From Alphaproteobacteria bacterium (GTDB lineage Bacteria; Pseudomonadota; Alphaproteobacteria; UBA8366; Aestuariispiraceae): a stretch of DNA of 64,000 nucleotides. Both the position numbers and the translations under genes were made by a program. The stretch spans positions 1,240,001 through 1,304,000 of the forward strand of contig JAWPMN010000001.1 in NCBI GenBank assembly GCA_033344895.1, given 5' to 3'. Shown piece after piece: positions 21,357 to 27,835 of the stretch. Below the pieces are notes generated by a model. The model made no database searches, was not told the DNA's origin, and worked only from the letters and a program-made list of their open reading frames with translations. Positions within the stretch are counted from its first letter, which is position 1; each line of letters starts with the position of its first letter.

Positions 21357-22313
21357 TTACGGCGACTTTTGGGCGCGTGCCTGATCCAGTTGTGCGTCGG
21401 TGAAGACCTCCTTGCGCGAACAGAACTCGCAGACGACTTCCAGCGTGCCGTCCTCCAGCTTCAGGTCTTCCAGCGCCTCGCGCTCCATCGACGACAGCAC
21501 GGTCTCGATGCGGTCACGCGAACAGCGGCATTTCTCGACGATCGGGCGGGGCTCGAAGACCCGGACGCCGTCTTCATGGAACAGGCGATAGAGAAGGTCG
21601 TTCGGCAGCAGGGCGGGATCGAGCATTTCCTCCGCAGTCGCAGTCTCCATCAGCATGCAGGCACGCCGCCAGTCATCCTCGCCGGCATGGCCGATGGACT
21701 GGTCCCCACCTTCCTCCGGAAGCCGCTGCACCAGCAGCGCGGCAGCGCCCACCGACCCGTCGGGGCGGTGGCCGGCGGCCAGCTTGACGGAGGACGCGAA
21801 CTGATCGGACTGGGCGAAGTAGCGATGAACGCACTCCTCGACCGTTGCGCCTTCCAGTTCGACGATCCCCTGATAGCGTTCCATATGCTGGCCCTGGTCG
21901 ACGGTGAAGGCCAGATACCCTTTGCCCAGCAGTTTCGGCACCGGCGCCTGGACGACCTCATGCAGGGGCGGCACCTCGCCCTTGACCTGGGCATAGCCGC
22001 GCAACACACCGTCGCTGGTGACATCCGCCACCAGCATCGGCACGGGACCATCCCCCTTGGTCTGGAGCGTGAAAATCCCGTCGAACTTGAGCGCCGCCGC
22101 CAGTCCGGCCCCGAGCGCGAGCATCTCCGCCAGGAGTTGCTGCACGGCATCGGGATAGCCGTGACGCTTCAGGATCGCATCGACGGACGGGCCCAGCTTG
22201 ACCATGCGGCCATGCAGGCCGGTCGCGTCGATCATGAAAGGCTGAACGACATCGTCGGTCACGTGTTCGTTCGCCGCGTCGCCCGGTGTGGGGATGCGGA
22301 TTTCGTCGGCCAT
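21357..22313 (-). CDS. hslO: Redox-regulated chaperone Hsp33
   Basis: Hsp33 is a holdase chaperone switched on by oxidative unfolding. In this 318-residue protein the C-terminal redox switch is intact: KCRCSRDR supplies the CxC pair and CEFCSRKE the CxxC pair that bind zinc in the reduced state. The N-terminal domain shows the family pattern DATGLHGRMVKLGPSVDAIL and YQGIVELEGATVEECVHRYF. ATG 22313 is chosen since the conserved sequence begins shortly after it. It follows argF by 23 nt, the known argD-argF-hslO arrangement of alphaproteobacteria. Confidence 0.95.
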   Translation of the reverse strand: MADEIRIPTPGDAANEHVTDDVVQPFMIDATGLHGRMVKLGPSVDAILKRHGYPDAVQQLLAEMLALGAGLAAALKFDGIFTLQTKGDGPVPMLVADVTSDGVLRGYAQVKGEVPPLHEVVQAPVPKLLGKGYLAFTVDQGQHMERYQGIVELEGATVEECVHRYFAQSDQFASSVKLAAGHRPDGSVGAAALLVQRLPEEGGDQSIGHAGEDDWRRACMLMETATAEEMLDPALLPNDLLYRLFHEDGVRVFEPRPIVEKCRCSRDRIETVLSSMEREALEDLKLEDGTLEVVCEFCSRKEVFTDAQLDQARAQKSP

Positions 22314-22336
22314 GGCGGCGCTCCGGTTCTTCGGTT

Positions 22337-23245
22337 CTAGTTTCCGCCGAGGCACCACAGAAGGATGCCCTTCTGTGCGTGCATTCGGTTCTCGGCCTCG
22401 TCCCAGACCACGGATTGCGGTCCGTCGATGACGCCGGCGGTCACCTCCTCGCCGCGATGGGCGGGCAGGCAGTGCATGAATATGGCATCGTCTTTCGCTT
22501 TTGCCATAAGTGCCTCGTCAACCTGGAACGGCTGCAGCAGATTGTGTCGGACAGGCGCGTCCTTGTCGCCCATCGACACCCAGACATCGGTGACGACGCA
22601 ATCCGCGCCCTCCACCGCATGTCCGGCATTGTGCATGATTTCCAGATCGCATCCTTCGGCGACGGCCCAGTCCAGAACGTCGCGCGGCGGCTGCAGTTCT
22701 TCCGGGCAAGCAATGCGCAGCTTGAACTTGAAGCGTGCCGCAGCATGGATCCAGCTGGTCGCCATGTTGTTGCCGTCACCGGCCCAGGCGACCGTCTTCC
22801 CCCGGATCGAACCGCGATGCTGTTCATAGGTCATCACATCCGCCATCAGCTGGCAGGGATGGGTGCGGTCGGTCAGACCGTTGATGACCGGAACACTTGC
22901 ATGCTCCGCCAGTTCCAGCAGCTTCTCTTCTTCCGTCGTACGGATCATGATCGCGTCGACATAGCGGGACAGGACACGCGCCGTGTCGGCGATGGTCTCG
23001 CCGCGGCCCAGCTGCGTTTCCGCCGGAGTCATCACGACGACATGGCCGCCCAGCTGCTTCATGCCGACGTCGAAGCTGATGCGTGTGCGGGTCGAGGGCT
23101 TCTCAAAAATGCAGGCCAGTGCCTTGCCGGCCAGCGGTTTCGGCGCATCGGCCGGGGCGCCGCGATGGGCGTTCCCGTAATCCAGCATGGTGCGCAGGGT
23201 TGCTTCGTCGAACTTGTCGAGATCCAGGAAGTGCTTAGGCGCCAT
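22337..23245 (-). CDS. argF: Ornithine carbamoyltransferase
   Basis: Makes citrulline from ornithine and carbamoyl phosphate in arginine synthesis. The 302-residue protein has the carbamoyl-phosphate motif FEKPSTRTR, the HPCQ motif ([11 protein letters not shown]), the ornithine loop (VSMGD) and the catalytic [11 protein letters not shown]. The ATG at 23245 overlaps the end of argD by 11 nt, indicating translational coupling. Confidence 0.97.
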
Positions 23246-24434
23246 CGGACAAACTCCATTCCGATGCCGTCTTGTCCAGGATCGCAACGGCCTCGTCGAT
23301 ATGAGATTCCTCAACAATCAGCGGCGGCAGCAGGCGGATGACATTCTCGCCCGCGCCGACGGTCAGCAGACCCGCGTCCCGCAGCGCGTCGATGAATTTC
23401 AGGTTGGTGACGTCCTTCGTGCAGACCAGCCCCTGCATCAGCCCGGCCCCGCGATGCCCGGCGAAGACCTTCGGGTGTTTGGCGACCAGGTCGTCCAGAC
23501 GGTCCCAAAGATGGGACCCCACCTTCTCAACCCCGTCCAGGAAGCCCGGTGCCAGGATCACATCCATCACGGCATTGCCGACCGCCATGGCAAGTGGGTT
23601 GCCGCCGAAGGTCGTGCCATGGGTACCGGGCGTCAACCCTCGCGCCGCCTTTTCCGTGGACAGGATGGCCCCCATCGGGAAGCCGCCGCCGATGCCCTTG
23701 GCCGTGGCGATGGCATCCGGTTCGATCCCGGCCCATTCATGGGCCCACATCTTGCCGGTCCGGCCGTTGCCTGACTGGACCTCGTCCAGAATCAGCAGGA
23801 TGCCGAACTCGTCCGCCGCGGCGCGCAGATCGCGCAGATACTGCAACGCGCCGGGGCGAATGCCGCCCTCGCCCTGGATCGGTTCGATCAGGATCGCGGC
23901 GGTTTCCGGGCCGATGGCGTCGCGCAGGGCGTTCATATTGCCGAAAGGCACATTGTCGAAGCCTTCGACCGCAGGGCCGAATCCGTCCATGTATTTCTTG
24001 TTGTTCGCCGCCGCGATGGTCGCCAGAGACCGACCATGGAAGGCGCCTTCGACCGTGACCACCCGGAACTTCTCCGGATGACCGTCGACCGCGTGATAGC
24101 GCCGGGCCAGCTTGATCAGCCCTTCCAGCGCCTCGACGCCGGAATTGCAGAAGAAGACGCGGTCGGCGAAGGATGTTTCGGTCAGCCGCCTGGCCAGCCT
24201 CTCGCCGTCCGGAATGGTGTAGAGGTTCGTCGTGTGCCAGAGCTTCCCGGCCTGTTCGGTCAGGGCCTTGACCAGATGCGGATGGGCATGGCCCAGCGCG
24301 TTCACGGCGATCCCGGCATAGAAGTCGAGATATCGTCGCCCGTCCGTATCCCACAGATAGACGCCTTCACCCCGGTCCATCGCAATCGGCGACCGGGCAT
24401 AGGTGTTCATCACTGCGGATTGGGACTCAGACAT
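23235..24434 (-). CDS. argD: Acetylornithine aminotransferase
   Basis: PLP-dependent class III aminotransferase, 399 residues, converting N-acetylglutamate semialdehyde to N-acetylornithine; ArgD enzymes often also act as succinyldiaminopimelate aminotransferase. Visible are [28 protein letters not shown], the PLP-binding Asp in [14 protein letters not shown] and the Schiff-base Lys in [14 protein letters not shown]. It heads the argD-argF-hslO unit. The start may be ATG 24434 or the in-frame ATG eight codons later. Confidence 0.96.
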
Positions 24435-24578: not shown

Positions 24579-26558
24579 CTAGAAATTTTCCTTATGGAAG
24601 CCGAAGCGGAAATCGGCGGCGGTCGCAGCCAGGATTTTCGCCAGCGGGGCCGGACCGCAGAAATAGACGTCGACCTGTCTGCCGGGGTTCTCTTCGGCAA
24701 CCTGCCGGAAGATCGCCCGCCAGTCCGGTCGGTCCAGATTGGTGCGATTGCGCAGACCGGTGAACAGGTCGCGACCGATCTCGCTGTGATAGACATCCAT
24801 GGCCATATCCAGCGTAGCGGAAGTCACATCCAGCTTCACGCCGGTCAGATAGACCTGTGCATCCAGCAGCTTTCCATCTGGATCTTCCGCCTCCAGCCCG
24901 GAGATCATGTCCGAGAACCACTCGAAGGCATATTGATCCCGGTTCATCCAGACGAAATGCACCTTCTTCAGGCCAAGCCCGGCATCCCCCGCAGCCCGCC
25001 GACGAAAAACGGATTTCAGGATCGCCGCAAAGGGCGTGACACCGATCCCGGCACCGATCAGCACCGCGACTTCAGATTTGAAGATATGCGTGCTGGGCGT
25101 CCCGTAAGGACCGTCGATGAACGCCTCGCCCAATACCGCGGGTTGTTCCTTGGCATGGCTGTGAAGTTTCCGCGTCCAGTTTCCCAGTCCCCGAACATGC
25201 ACCGACAGAATGCCGTTTTCCTCCGGGCAGGTCGTGACCGTGAACGGGTGCCATTCGCGCCTGGAAATCGGCGGATACCTCACAAAGACATAATCACCGG
25301 GCTGGTAGGTGTAGCCATCGGGCAACTGCACCTCCAACCGCGTCACCGAGGACGGCAACGGTTCCGCCGCGCTGACCGGGAAGGCCCGGCGCGTGTGGCG
25401 GAAACGGATCAGCCGTTCCGCGACATAGCCCAGAATTGGTATGCCCGCCCAGATCCAGAAGACCGGCCCGTGCATCACGGCCAGCACGAACCACACCAGA
25501 TAGAGCATATGGGTGAAATAGAAGAGCTCGAACCGACCGCTGCGCCGAATCCAATCCAGCGCGCAAATCCACATGACCAGAAAAGCGATCATCAGGACCA
25601 TGCCCGTCAGCCCCGCCGAGGTGCCGAACAGATGGGCGGGAATACCGCCTTCAAGGGTCGCGTAGTTCGCCAGATGCGCCGCGGTGTGCAGACCGGCAAA
25701 GCCCATCATCACGTGGCCGACCAGTTTATGGAAGGCGATGGCGTGATCGACCGGCACGATCTCGCCCAGCACCGAATGCCGAACCCGTGTCAGCAGGTGG
25801 CGCAGCATCGGAATCAGGATCAGGGCACCATTAAAATTCAGACACGCCCCGCCGCCGCGCGCCAACTGGACGTATATATTGGCCCCGGCCTCGGCATAGG
25901 TGACAATGGCATTGGCGAACAGGGCGATATTGGCGACAAAATAGAGCAGCAGCAAGGTAGACGCCGCGCGGTTGCTGGCAATCCTCTGCCCCAGAATACG
26001 CAGCCGATCGCCGAGACTGGGCCCACGTTTCGGGCGGGGTGGAGGCGGCATCAGCAGGGCGGTCGCCGAACGCGACATTTGCGCCTTCAACTTCGGATAG
26101 GCGTCCAGCACGCCCTGAAACTCCACGAAGTCGATCCCGCCATCTCCATCCGCGTCGGCGCGCCGGAACAGCGCGTCCGTCAAACCGTTCACGGCGACGT
26201 CCGGCAGGCTGGCGCCGTGTTGGGCTAGGCTGGCCGTCAGGATGCGATGCAACTCGTCCCAGTCGATCTCACCGCTGTCATCCGGATCGTGCAGGTCAAA
26301 GGCAAAACGCAGCCGGTCTTCATCCGTTCCCTGGACGATCCGCTCCGCGAAGACGACGAATTCCGCCGTATCAATGCGACCGCTGCCGTCGCGGTCCACC
26401 ATCGCAAACAGGCGCTTGGCGTAATAGGGATCACGCAGGCCCAGAGCGGCTCCCAACTCGCCCAGATCGATCGAGGCATCCGCCCCGGCGATTTCATTGA
26501 AGCGCTGACGCATCGTGTCGAGGAACACACGGTCCTCGGACGTGATTTCGCCGGTCAT
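24579..26558 (-). CDS. EF-hand NADPH oxidase, NOX5-like
   Basis: A 659-residue predicted calcium-regulated superoxide-producing oxidase. Three canonical EF-hand loops lie at residues 55-66 (DRDGSGRIDTAE), 91-102 (DPDDSGEIDWDE) and 135-146 (DADGDGGIDFVE), after a degenerate one near 28-39. About six membrane segments (200-385) carry the ferric-reductase haem histidines H277/H291 (FHK...HTAAHL) and H350/H363 (FTH...MHG), spaced 14 and 13 residues as in human NOX enzymes. RRSGRFELFYFTH resembles NOX5. The FAD site is HPFTV near 437, the NADPH sites are GAGIGVTPFAAIL and CGP, and the protein ends FGFHKENF, like the KENF end of NOX2. ATG 26558 has GGGGGA upstream. Activity and calcium control are inferred. 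Confidence 0.93.
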   Translation of the reverse strand: MTGEITSEDRVFLDTMRQRFNEIAGADASIDLGELGAALGLRDPYYAKRLFAMVDRDGSGRIDTAEFVVFAERIVQGTDEDRLRFAFDLHDPDDSGEIDWDELHRILTASLAQHGASLPDVAVNGLTDALFRRADADGDGGIDFVEFQGVLDAYPKLKAQMSRSATALLMPPPPRPKRGPSLGDRLRILGQRIASNRAASTLLLLYFVANIALFANAIVTYAEAGANIYVQLARGGGACLNFNGALILIPMLRHLLTRVRHSVLGEIVPVDHAIAFHKLVGHVMMGFAGLHTAAHLANYATLEGGIPAHLFGTSAGLTGMVLMIAFLVMWICALDWIRRSGRFELFYFTHMLYLVWFVLAVMHGPVFWIWAGIPILGYVAERLIRFRHTRRAFPVSAAEPLPSSVTRLEVQLPDGYTYQPGDYVFVRYPPISRREWHPFTVTTCPEENGILSVHVRGLGNWTRKLHSHAKEQPAVLGEAFIDGPYGTPSTHIFKSEVAVLIGAGIGVTPFAAILKSVFRRRAAGDAGLGLKKVHFVWMNRDQYAFEWFSDMISGLEAEDPDGKLLDAQVYLTGVKLDVTSATLDMAMDVYHSEIGRDLFTGLRNRTNLDRPDWRAIFRQVAEENPGRQVDVYFCGPAPLAKILAATAADFRFGFHKENF

Positions 26559-26656: not shown

Positions 26657-27835
26657 CTACGGACCGTCGTAGAGCCAGGCCAGCCCTTCATAGGACTGTT
26701 CCGGCGTGCGCATGCCCAGTACGTGATTCCGCAGGTCGGCACGAACATCGGCGGCGTGGTAGATCTCGCCCAGCAGCCGGGCCATCAGTTGGACCCGTGC
26801 CGTGCGCAGATAGCGGGCATCACGATAGGCCTCGAAGGCCCTGGGGAAGTCGTCGCCGGCCTGTTCAAGCGCATCCGAAAGACAGACCGCATCCTCTGTC
26901 GCCATGCAGGCGCCCTGCGCGAAGTACTGCAACATCGGATGCGCGGCATCGCCCAACAGGGCGACATTGCCCTGGAACCACTCGCGGATCGGTTCGCGAT
27001 CGCACAGGACCCAATACCGCCAGTCGGTGATACGCGACAGAAGGCTGGCGGGGCGCGGATCGACGCCTTCGAACCGCTGCATCAACTCGTCCCGGTCGCC
27101 GGACAGATCCCAGCCTTCGACGTAACGGTCACTGTGAAAAACCGCGACCATGTTGAACAGTTCCTTCCGGCGCAGCGGGTAATGCACCAGATGGGTTTTC
27201 GGCCCGGCCCAGAGGCTGGCGGAATCCCAGCGCACATTCTCCGGCACCTGGTCATAGGGCAGCACCGCCCGATAGGCGATGTGGCCCGACACCCGGGGCG
27301 GGCCGTCATTCAACATCTGAGCACGCACCCTGGACCACAGGCCATCCGCGCCGATCAGGGCCCGGCCCTCGCGCGTGGTCCCATCGGCCAGCCGAAGGGT
27401 AACCCGGTCGCCCTGGTCGGAATACCCCGTGACCTTGGCCTCGGTTTCAAGAACGACGAGGTCGTCCAGTTCCTGACAGGATTTCAGCAGGGTCGTGTGC
27501 AGATCGCCGCGATGGGTGACGGCATAGGGTTTGCCGAACCGCGCCTCGAAGGGCTGTTTCAGCGGAACCTGCATCACCCGCTCGCCGGTCAGGCTATCCA
27601 TGAAACGGATGTCGTCGACGAAGACGGCGTCGGCGCGGATCGCATCCTCGATCCCCAATCGTTCGAACATGCGAAAGACGTTGGGGCTCAACTGGATGCC
27701 CGCCCCGATCTCGCCGAAGGCGCGCCCCTGTTCCAGCACATGGACCCGCCGCCCCTTCAGAGCCAGCGCCCGAGCCGTCGCCAGGCCACCGATGCCGCCG
27801 CCGACGATCAGTATGGGGGCGTCCTGTGCCGCCAT
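26657..27835 (-). CDS. FAD-dependent aromatic monooxygenase (3-hydroxybenzoate 6-hydroxylase-like)
   Basis: A 392-residue class A flavoprotein hydroxylase. Motifs: Rossmann fingerprint ILIVGGGIGGLATARAL, the DG motif LIGADGLWSRVR and the FAD-binding GDAAHPMLQYFAQGACMA. The combination with GEIGAGIQLSPNVFRMFE is characteristic of salicylate / 3-hydroxybenzoate hydroxylases, which add a ring hydroxyl using NAD(P)H and O2; the closest guess is 3-hydroxybenzoate 6-monooxygenase, making gentisate. No gentisate-pathway genes are nearby, so the substrate is uncertain. GAGGG precedes ATG 27835. Confidence 0.85.
   Translation of the reverse strand: MAAQDAPILIVGGGIGGLATARALALKGRRVHVLEQGRAFGEIGAGIQLSPNVFRMFERLGIEDAIRADAVFVDDIRFMDSLTGERVMQVPLKQPFEARFGKPYAVTHRGDLHTTLLKSCQELDDLVVLETEAKVTGYSDQGDRVTLRLADGTTREGRALIGADGLWSRVRAQMLNDGPPRVSGHIAYRAVLPYDQVPENVRWDSASLWAGPKTHLVHYPLRRKELFNMVAVFHSDRYVEGWDLSGDRDELMQRFEGVDPRPASLLSRITDWRYWVLCDREPIREWFQGNVALLGDAAHPMLQYFAQGACMATEDAVCLSDALEQAGDDFPRAFEAYRDARYLRTARVQLMARLLGEIYHAADVRADLRNHVLGMRTPEQSYEGLAWLYDGP

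What the first reader, a model, noticed from the sequence alone, without database searches (positions are those of the whole stretch)
24579..26558. Bacterial NADPH oxidase with NOX5-like EF-hand domain
The protein combines three canonical EF-hand loops (12-residue D-x-D-x-[DS]-G pattern, final Glu), a degenerate fourth, six membrane segments with paired haem histidines at the NOX spacing, and FAD and NADPH domains ending in KENF. Known bacterial NOX proteins include SpNOX (no EF-hands) and a cyanobacterial NOX5 homologue; an alphaproteobacterial Ca2+-gated NOX is uncommon. The gene sits just upstream of the argD-argF-hslO unit, whose last gene is an oxidant-activated chaperone.
Basis: partly seen in the sequence, partly recalled or inferred. 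Interest (0 to 1): 0.82.

Follow-up and report, generated by a model that had tools for sequence, protein, structure and literature searches.

The report
Bacterial calcium-switched NADPH oxidase, NOX5 type
An alphaproteobacterium encodes a complete relative of the human calcium-activated enzyme NOX5, which makes superoxide on demand; such enzymes are well known in animals and reported from a few cyanobacteria, and are rare in the bacteria sampled here.

Summary
Confirmed, with one addition: the gene is on the MINUS strand (ATG 26558, stop 24579-24581, 659 aa). It is an intact NOX5-type NADPH oxidase: four EF-hands (three canonical), six predicted membrane helices with four haem histidines, FAD and NADPH domains. 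It also keeps the oxygen-site residues (R234, H295) and both aspartates (D577, D597) through which the EF-domain activates csNOX5. Its predicted domains match csNOX5 and human NOX5; the tree sets it apart from six bacterial FRD-FNR proteins (100/99). dN/dS is about 0.09. Best reading: a Ca2+-gated enzyme passing cytosolic NADPH electrons to periplasmic O2; gating and superoxide are inferred. The argD-argF-hslO neighbour is incidental. Passages I saw in papers name EF-hand NOX among bacteria only in cyanobacteria; I find it also in Alphaproteobacteria and in Burkholderiales, Spirochaetes and Myxococcota MAGs. The window genus has a second EF-hand NOX in 6 of 6 genomes, with both oxygen-site residues replaced and a divergent cytochrome c gene beside it. 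The window gene is a new member of a known kind.

The parts
24579..26558 (-). EF-hand NADPH oxidase gene (NOX-A), 659 aa, complete
   Evidence: purifying selection against the L015 orthologue, dN/dS 0.093
26049..26558 (-). N-terminal regulatory EF-hand domain, about residues 1-170; loops at 27-38 (degenerate), 55-66, 91-102 and 135-146 (canonical)
   Evidence: Pfam EF-hand models; loops read across 18 sequences
25392..25973 (-). six-helix haem-binding membrane domain, about residues 196-389, with H277, H291, H350, H363 and oxygen-site residues R234 and H295
   Evidence: Pfam Ferric_reduct, residue map, predicted helices, fold match to csNOX5 membrane domain 5o0t, target-normalised TM 0.90, rmsd 1.8
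24582..25391 (-). dehydrogenase domain, about residues 390-659: FAD_binding_8 and NAD_binding_6; putative EF-binding segment about 577-600 with D577 and D597; ends KENF
   Evidence: fold match to csNOX5 DH (8cap_C, target-normalised TM 0.90)
23235..24434 (-). argD (neighbour, not part of the system)
   Evidence: NCBIfam PRK01278 and TIGR00707 over cut-off
22337..23245 (-). argF (neighbour, not part of the system)
   Evidence: NCBIfam TIGR00658 over cut-off
21357..22316 (-). hslO/Hsp33 (neighbour; linkage to NOX judged incidental; the start is uncertain)
   Evidence: Pfam HSP33 over cut-off, NCBIfam Hsp33 models below theirs; argF and hslO follow argD in 13 of 13 argD loci
26657..27835 (-). upstream neighbour: 3-hydroxybenzoate 6-monooxygenase-like flavoprotein
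   Evidence: NCBIfam PRK08163 over cut-off; also upstream of the orthologue in L015

Best explanation
The gene encodes a single-chain, NOX5-type transmembrane NADPH oxidase. When cytosolic Ca2+ rises, the calmodulin-like N-terminal EF-domain orders and binds the dehydrogenase domain at the segment holding D577 and D597. This allows hydride transfer from NADPH to FAD; electrons then pass one at a time through the inner and outer haems (four histidines) to O2 in a pocket lined by R234 and H295, releasing superoxide on the periplasmic side. Shown here: domain make-up, cofactor and switch residues, predicted fold, placement among NOX, purifying selection. Inferred: Ca2+ gating, the identity of the acceptor, the topology (EF and DH domains inside) and any physiological role.
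For: Human NOX5 E 3.3e-133, csNOX5 DH 1.7e-82 and csNOX5 membrane domain 9.3e-59. Model mean pLDDT 85.7; top Foldseek hits are human NOX5, DUOX1, NOX2 and csNOX5. Residues equal to csNOX5 R256, H313, H317, W378, D611 and D631 are all kept. csNOX5 is Ca2+-activated, and its D611H, D631A and D631R mutants lose most or all of that activation (PMC7317449, passages); R256S and H317R are reported to lower the oxidation rate at least fivefold (PMC8129163, passage). NOX clade at 100/99 against 6 FRD-FNR outgroups. dN/dS 0.093 over 659 codons; EF-domain 0.093, core 0.094.
Against: No biochemical data. Identity to characterised enzymes is moderate (46% to the Cylindrospermum NIES-4074 protein, a close homologue of csNOX5; 36% to the human NOX5 core). 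Whole-chain TM to human NOX5 structures is only 0.44-0.66. The CXXC zinc insertion of NOX5 orthologues is absent (4 Cys, none in CXXC). No partner gene was recognised beside it, and the neighbourhoods of the group A genes in L016 and L020 differ. Deep branching of the tree is unresolved and the outgroup branches are long.
Confidence: 0.78

Rival explanations
1. The enzyme is a Ca2+-gated transmembrane reductase whose physiological acceptor is not O2 but Fe(III), a quinone or a periplasmic cytochrome; superoxide is a side product.
For: csNOX and SpNOX are said to have free access to the outer haem and may use other acceptors (PMC11031084, passages). The paralogue in the same genome has lost the O2-site residues and sits beside a cytochrome c gene.
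Against: The window protein, unlike the paralogue, keeps both O2-site residues and the NOX signature His and Thr (H295, T318). Of 12 neighbouring frames scanned, none matched a cytochrome or iron family; 2 of the 12 had no match at all.
Confidence: 0.14
2. The EF-hands are structural or locked and do not switch the enzyme: a constitutive oxidase.
For: The bacterial NOX SpNOX is constitutively active (PMC11031084, passages); Ca2+ signalling in this genus was not examined.
Against: Three full canonical loops and both EF-contact aspartates are conserved, and the EF-domain is under the same constraint as the core (dN/dS 0.093 against 0.094). The nearest characterised bacterial relative needs its EF-domain and Ca2+ (PMC7317449, passages).
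Confidence: 0.08
3. On origin: the gene is a late arrival from a eukaryotic NOX5 lineage (as claimed for cyanobacteria) rather than part of an old bacterial EF-NOX family that spread among phyla.
For: Published view for cyanobacterial NOX5 (PMC9421330, PMC5676040, PMC3591440, PMC11564096; passages). Holding bacteria plus human NOX5 together is not rejected (p-AU 0.408). GC (0.614) and GC3 (0.756) of the gene are a little below the window mean (0.635) and below GC3 of four neighbours (0.776-0.816).
Against: Related genes occur in Alphaproteobacteria, cyanobacteria and in Burkholderiales, Spirochaetes and Myxococcota MAGs. In the trees the human proteins fall within this spread: weakly with FRD-FNR outgroups, and human NOX5 beside cyanobacteria and the Burkholderiales row at 84/88 when rooted on NOX2. 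The composition difference is small.
Confidence: 0.35
4. NOX, argD-argF and hslO form one oxidant-response unit.
For: Same strand, 144 bp apart; Hsp33 is oxidant-activated (recalled).
Against: argF and hslO follow argD in 13 of 13 argD loci of the family; NOX-A is beside argD in only 2 of those 13.
Confidence: 0.03

Closest known systems
Cylindrospermum stagnale NOX5 (csNOX5; 5o0t, 5o0x, 8cak)
   Same: EF-domain, membrane and DH order; all haem, O2-site and EF-contact residues (mapped through the homologue L018); folds at target-normalised TM up to about 0.9 for both solved domains
   Different: About 46% identity to the NIES-4074 homologue; alphaproteobacterial host; a loop before residue 479 is about 11 residues shorter
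Human NOX5 (6sz5, 8u7y, 8u85-8u87)
   Same: Same architecture, with three canonical EF-hands and one non-canonical (PMC7317449); best sequence and fold hit
   Different: Lacks the two long inserts of the human dehydrogenase domain visible, including the CXXC insert; has Arg where human NOX5 has Lys at the O2 site (by eye); 36% core identity
SpNOX and SpNOX-like bacterial NOX
   Same: Membrane-plus-dehydrogenase NOX core
   Different: No regulatory domain and no canonical O2-site residues (PMC11564096, passages); much weaker fold hit, 17% identity. SpNOX itself was not in my trees
Own-genome paralogue NOX-B (G000:C1:70050-72032, L002)
   Same: EF-hands, four haem histidines, DH domain; 44-45% identity
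   Different: O2-site Arg to Gln and His to Tyr; Glu at the D611 position; seven extra residues after the third membrane helix; head-to-head with a cytochrome c gene

Membership tests
NADPH oxidase (NOX) family | Six-helix ferric-reductase domain with four haem His (NOX2 101/115/209/222 positions) | tested here: met
   H277, H291, H350, H363 invariant in 18 of 18 rows; Ferric_reduct over cut-off; helices in the model
NADPH oxidase (NOX) family | FAD_binding_8 and NAD_binding_6 domains | tested here: met
   fold match to csNOX5 DH
NADPH oxidase (NOX) family | NOX rather than ferric-reductase signature (His119 and Thr178 of NOX2) | tested here: met
   H295 and T318; signature as described in PMC3591440 (passages)
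NADPH oxidase (NOX) family | Groups with NOX, not with ferric reductases, in a tree | tested here: met
   100/99 against 6 bacterial FRD-FNR outgroups, with long-branch warnings; no eukaryotic ferric reductase and no SpNOX in the tree
NOX5-type (EF-hand NOX) | N-terminal calmodulin-like domain, four EF-hands, EF2-4 canonical | tested here: met
   pattern as described in PMC7317449 (passages)
NOX5-type (EF-hand NOX) | Both aspartates of the EF-binding segment of the DH domain | tested here: met
   D577 and D597
NOX5-type (EF-hand NOX) | Ca2+-dependent superoxide production | not testable with these tools
   needs an assay
NOX5 orthologue of the human kind | INS2 insert with CXXC zinc motif | tested here: not met
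   4 Cys at 239, 332, 444, 634, none in CXXC; motif from PMC11088703 (passages)
DUOX | N-terminal peroxidase-homology domain | tested here: not met
   No An_peroxidase among the 11 Pfam matches
SpNOX-like bacterial NOX | No regulatory domain; constitutive | tested here: not met
   EF-domain present; constitutive activity not testable

The most novel reading that the evidence does not exclude
EF-hand NOX enzymes are an old, multi-phylum bacterial family, not a cyanobacterial curiosity borrowed from eukaryotes. In the window genus the family has split into two Ca2+-gated transmembrane electron exporters: one (the window gene) feeding periplasmic O2 to make superoxide, and one that has lost the oxygen site and feeds a dedicated periplasmic cytochrome c.
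Probability: 0.25. Interest if true: 0.78.

Novelty: new member of a known kind. Interest (0 to 1): 0.52.

Why it matters
The enzymes behind extracellular superoxide in marine bacteria were, in 2019, identified only as an animal-type haem peroxidase in one Roseobacter strain (PMC6414704, passages). A Ca2+-gated oxidase in a genus with at least one named strain (Pacificispira spongiicola KN72, which carries NOX-B; marine origin of the genus is recalled, not from a call) is a testable candidate. It would also tie a Ca2+ signal to an oxidative burst in a bacterium. The wider spread of EF-hand NOX bears on whether NOX5 passed from eukaryotes to bacteria or the other way.

Tried and rejected
Link to argD-argF-hslO: rejected, the three genes stay together without NOX. 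Ferric-reductase identity: disfavoured by tree and residues. Weak NCBIfam hit to XopAW (43 bits against a cut-off of 120, residues 46-152): EF-hand similarity only. Plasmids: 76 records match, none covers 80% of the protein; the 20 listed are 23.5-27.9% identical and annotated as ferric-reductase-like, FAD-binding or ferredoxin-reductase proteins; 56 were not listed. Viral contigs: none found with the short peptide patterns that were used. The 544-aa ORF on the opposite strand (24594-26228): no Pfam match, judged a shadow frame. Promoters and terminators: no more than in shuffles. Cu/Zn SOD as partner: no match in 14 of 14 family genomes; the control rang in 4 of 14. Animal haem peroxidase as partner: no match in the 6 genomes of the genus, 2 of 14 in the family; the control rang in 0 of 14. 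Direction of transfer: not decided (p-AU 0.408; only three human NOX proteins at hand). One or two losses of the O2-site His: parsimony gives 2 changes, one clade not rejected (p-AU 0.144).

Full report
WHAT IS THERE. The open frame at 24579-26558 is on the minus strand, starts with ATG at 26558 after an SD-like GGGGGA, and encodes 659 aa without interruption. Pfam finds EF-hands, Ferric_reduct, FAD_binding_8 and NAD_binding_6, all above their cut-offs. The best match among 177,635 distinct PDB sequences is human NOX5 (E 3.3e-133), followed by the C. stagnale NOX5 dehydrogenase domain (1.7e-82); NOX2, DUOX1 and the C. stagnale NOX5 membrane domain (9.3e-59) also score far above chance.

RESIDUES THAT MATTER. 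I aligned 18 EF-NOX sequences and mapped published csNOX5 residues through the close homologue L018 with an offset of 24; the six published residues (R256, H313, H317, W378, D611, D631) land on the expected letters. The window protein keeps R256, H313 and H317 of the proposed O2 pocket (R234, H291, H295), the inter-haem Trp (W356), and D611 and D631 (D577, D597). In csNOX5 D611 and D631 are needed for Ca2+ activation (PMC7317449, passages); another paper gives two csNOX5 aspartates other numbers, 639 and 649 (PMC11088703, passages). R256S and H317R are reported to cut the oxidation rate at least fivefold (PMC8129163, passage, reporting Magnani 2017, which I did not see). The protein lacks the CXXC zinc insert described for NOX5 orthologues (Cys positions).

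FOLD AND SELECTION. The AlphaFold2 model from these 18 sequences has mean pLDDT 85.7 and pTM 0.78. Foldseek ranks human NOX5 first; by domain, the csNOX5 membrane structure 5o0t aligns at target-normalised TM 0.90, rmsd 1.8, and the DH domain at up to 0.90. Whole-chain TM to the four human NOX5 entries is only 0.44-0.66, perhaps because the domains are placed differently; the second structural aligner was not available. Against the 90% identical orthologue L015, dN/dS is 0.093 over 659 codons, with the same constraint on the EF-domain (0.093) and the core (0.094).

WHERE IT OCCURS. The window lies in a 4.64 Mb single-contig genome. An EF-NOX is found in 6 of 6 genomes of the genus and 0 of 8 of the other genera of the family; in 6 of 43 of the order, all of this genus; in 2 of 385 sampled from the class, both of this genus; and in 1 of 398 sampled from the phylum, the window's own genome. 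The true orthologue (group A) is in 2 of the 6; relatives of group A are in two Rhodospirillaceae MAGs (L016 at 61%, and L020 at 67% in its best segment, whose frame is broken in the record). The genome-contig scan used only two short peptide patterns, so its 20 loci are a lower bound: 9 alphaproteobacterial loci, 4 cyanobacterial, 1 Burkholderiales MAG, 1 Spirochaetes MAG, 4 loci from 3 Myxococcota MAGs and 1 unassigned MAG. Assignments rest on record titles, except that the three loci titled Mesoflavibacter are counted as alphaproteobacterial for the reason given under Noticed in passing.

TREE. With six bacterial FRD-FNR outgroups the 22 NOX rows, window included, form one side of a 100/99 branch; the program warned of long outgroup branches. 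The window gene groups with L015, L016 and L020 (100/98) and less firmly with the paralogue group B (89/87; 95/96, 89/88). The position of human NOX5, NOX2 and DUOX1 among the bacterial groups is weakly supported (49/56), and a tree holding bacteria and human NOX5 together is not rejected (p-AU 0.408). Rooted on NOX2 with DUOX1 left out, human NOX5 sits with cyanobacteria and the Burkholderiales row at 84/88. The published view of transfer from eukaryotes to cyanobacteria (PMC9421330, PMC5676040, PMC3591440, PMC11564096; passages) is thus neither confirmed nor refuted, but the family is broader than those passages say.

NEIGHBOURHOOD. Downstream on the same strand lie argD, argF and hslO; upstream a 3-hydroxybenzoate 6-monooxygenase-like gene. 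A search for argD in 14 family genomes found it in 13; argF and hslO follow it in all 13, NOX precedes it in only 2, the window genome and its nearest relative (the loci reach at most 1.5 kb upstream of argD). The two Rhodospirillaceae MAGs with group A genes have none of these neighbours in the stretch held. So the gene appears to stand alone, and its place beside an oxidant-activated chaperone gene says little about its function.

THE PARALOGUE. The same genome carries a second EF-NOX (NOX-B, 44-45% identical). In the five NOX-B rows of the alignment the O2-pocket Arg is Gln and the His is Tyr, while all haem ligands remain; the sixth, from G009, shows the same letters in its translation (by eye). 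In 6 of 6 genomes it is head-to-head with a small cytochrome c gene (exported-looking by eye) followed by a 166-aa protein; Pfam was run on one of the six pairs and gave Cytochrom_C over its cut-off (E 5.1e-6) and no match for the 166-aa protein. This points to a different acceptor, and by contrast supports O2 as the acceptor of the window enzyme. Myxococcota EF-NOX have also lost the His (Phe or Tyr; 3 of 3 rows). Caution: human NOX5 has Lys, not Arg, at the Arg position (by eye), so the His is the better marker.

HOW IT PROBABLY WORKS. Shown: an intact gene under purifying selection with the cofactor, oxygen-site and switch residues named above. Inferred: Ca2+ binding to EF2-4 docks the EF-domain on the dehydrogenase domain, electrons flow NADPH to FAD to two haems to O2, and superoxide appears outside the inner membrane. 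No Cu/Zn SOD match was found in any of the 14 family genomes (control positive in 4 of 14 genomes), so periplasmic superoxide might not meet that enzyme. The role is unknown.

NOVELTY. The searches (listings) in the held open-access library, and passages of the papers named above and of PMC9524095, PMC11031084, PMC8228183 and PMC10574481, showed no mention of EF-hand NOX in bacteria other than cyanobacteria. One paper says only that a few bacterial sequences, 'for instance' Acaryochloris, fall among eukaryotic NOX (PMC5676040), so others may sit in its tree or supplement, which I could not see; subscription papers and preprints were not searchable. I file the window gene as a new member of a known kind (NOX5-type NADPH oxidase). 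NOX-B would be a new variant if its acceptor is confirmed.

Noticed in passing
G000:C1:70050-72032 (L002); L021, L019, L023, L026, L032/L009: Second EF-hand NOX in all 6 genomes of the genus, with O2-site Arg to Gln and His to Tyr and seven extra residues after the third membrane helix (aligned rows: 5 of 6); in 6 of 6 it is divergent from a cytochrome c gene and a 166-aa gene of unknown family.
   Followed up: partly
L028, L031, L033 (Myxococcota MAGs): EF-hand NOX proteins in which the NOX signature His is Phe or Tyr, as in NOX-B; two losses on the tree by parsimony, one not excluded.
   Followed up: partly
L015, L021, L022 (record CP051228.1): A record titled Mesoflavibacter (Bacteroidota) matches by coordinates genome G011, placed in the window's genus, so the organism name looks wrong; its two near-identical NOX-B copies near the two ends suggest overlapping ends of an unclosed assembly.
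   Followed up: no
whole genomes of the family: No Cu/Zn superoxide dismutase match in 14 of 14 family genomes, although 6 of the 14 encode EF-hand NADPH oxidases.
   Followed up: no
L020:5995-7975; L032:5986-8029: Two MAG copies of EF-NOX genes have a broken frame in the record, possibly assembly errors; left as they are.
   Followed up: no
window 24594-26228 +: A 544-aa open frame runs antisense to the NOX gene; no Pfam match, most likely a GC-rich shadow frame.
   Followed up: yes
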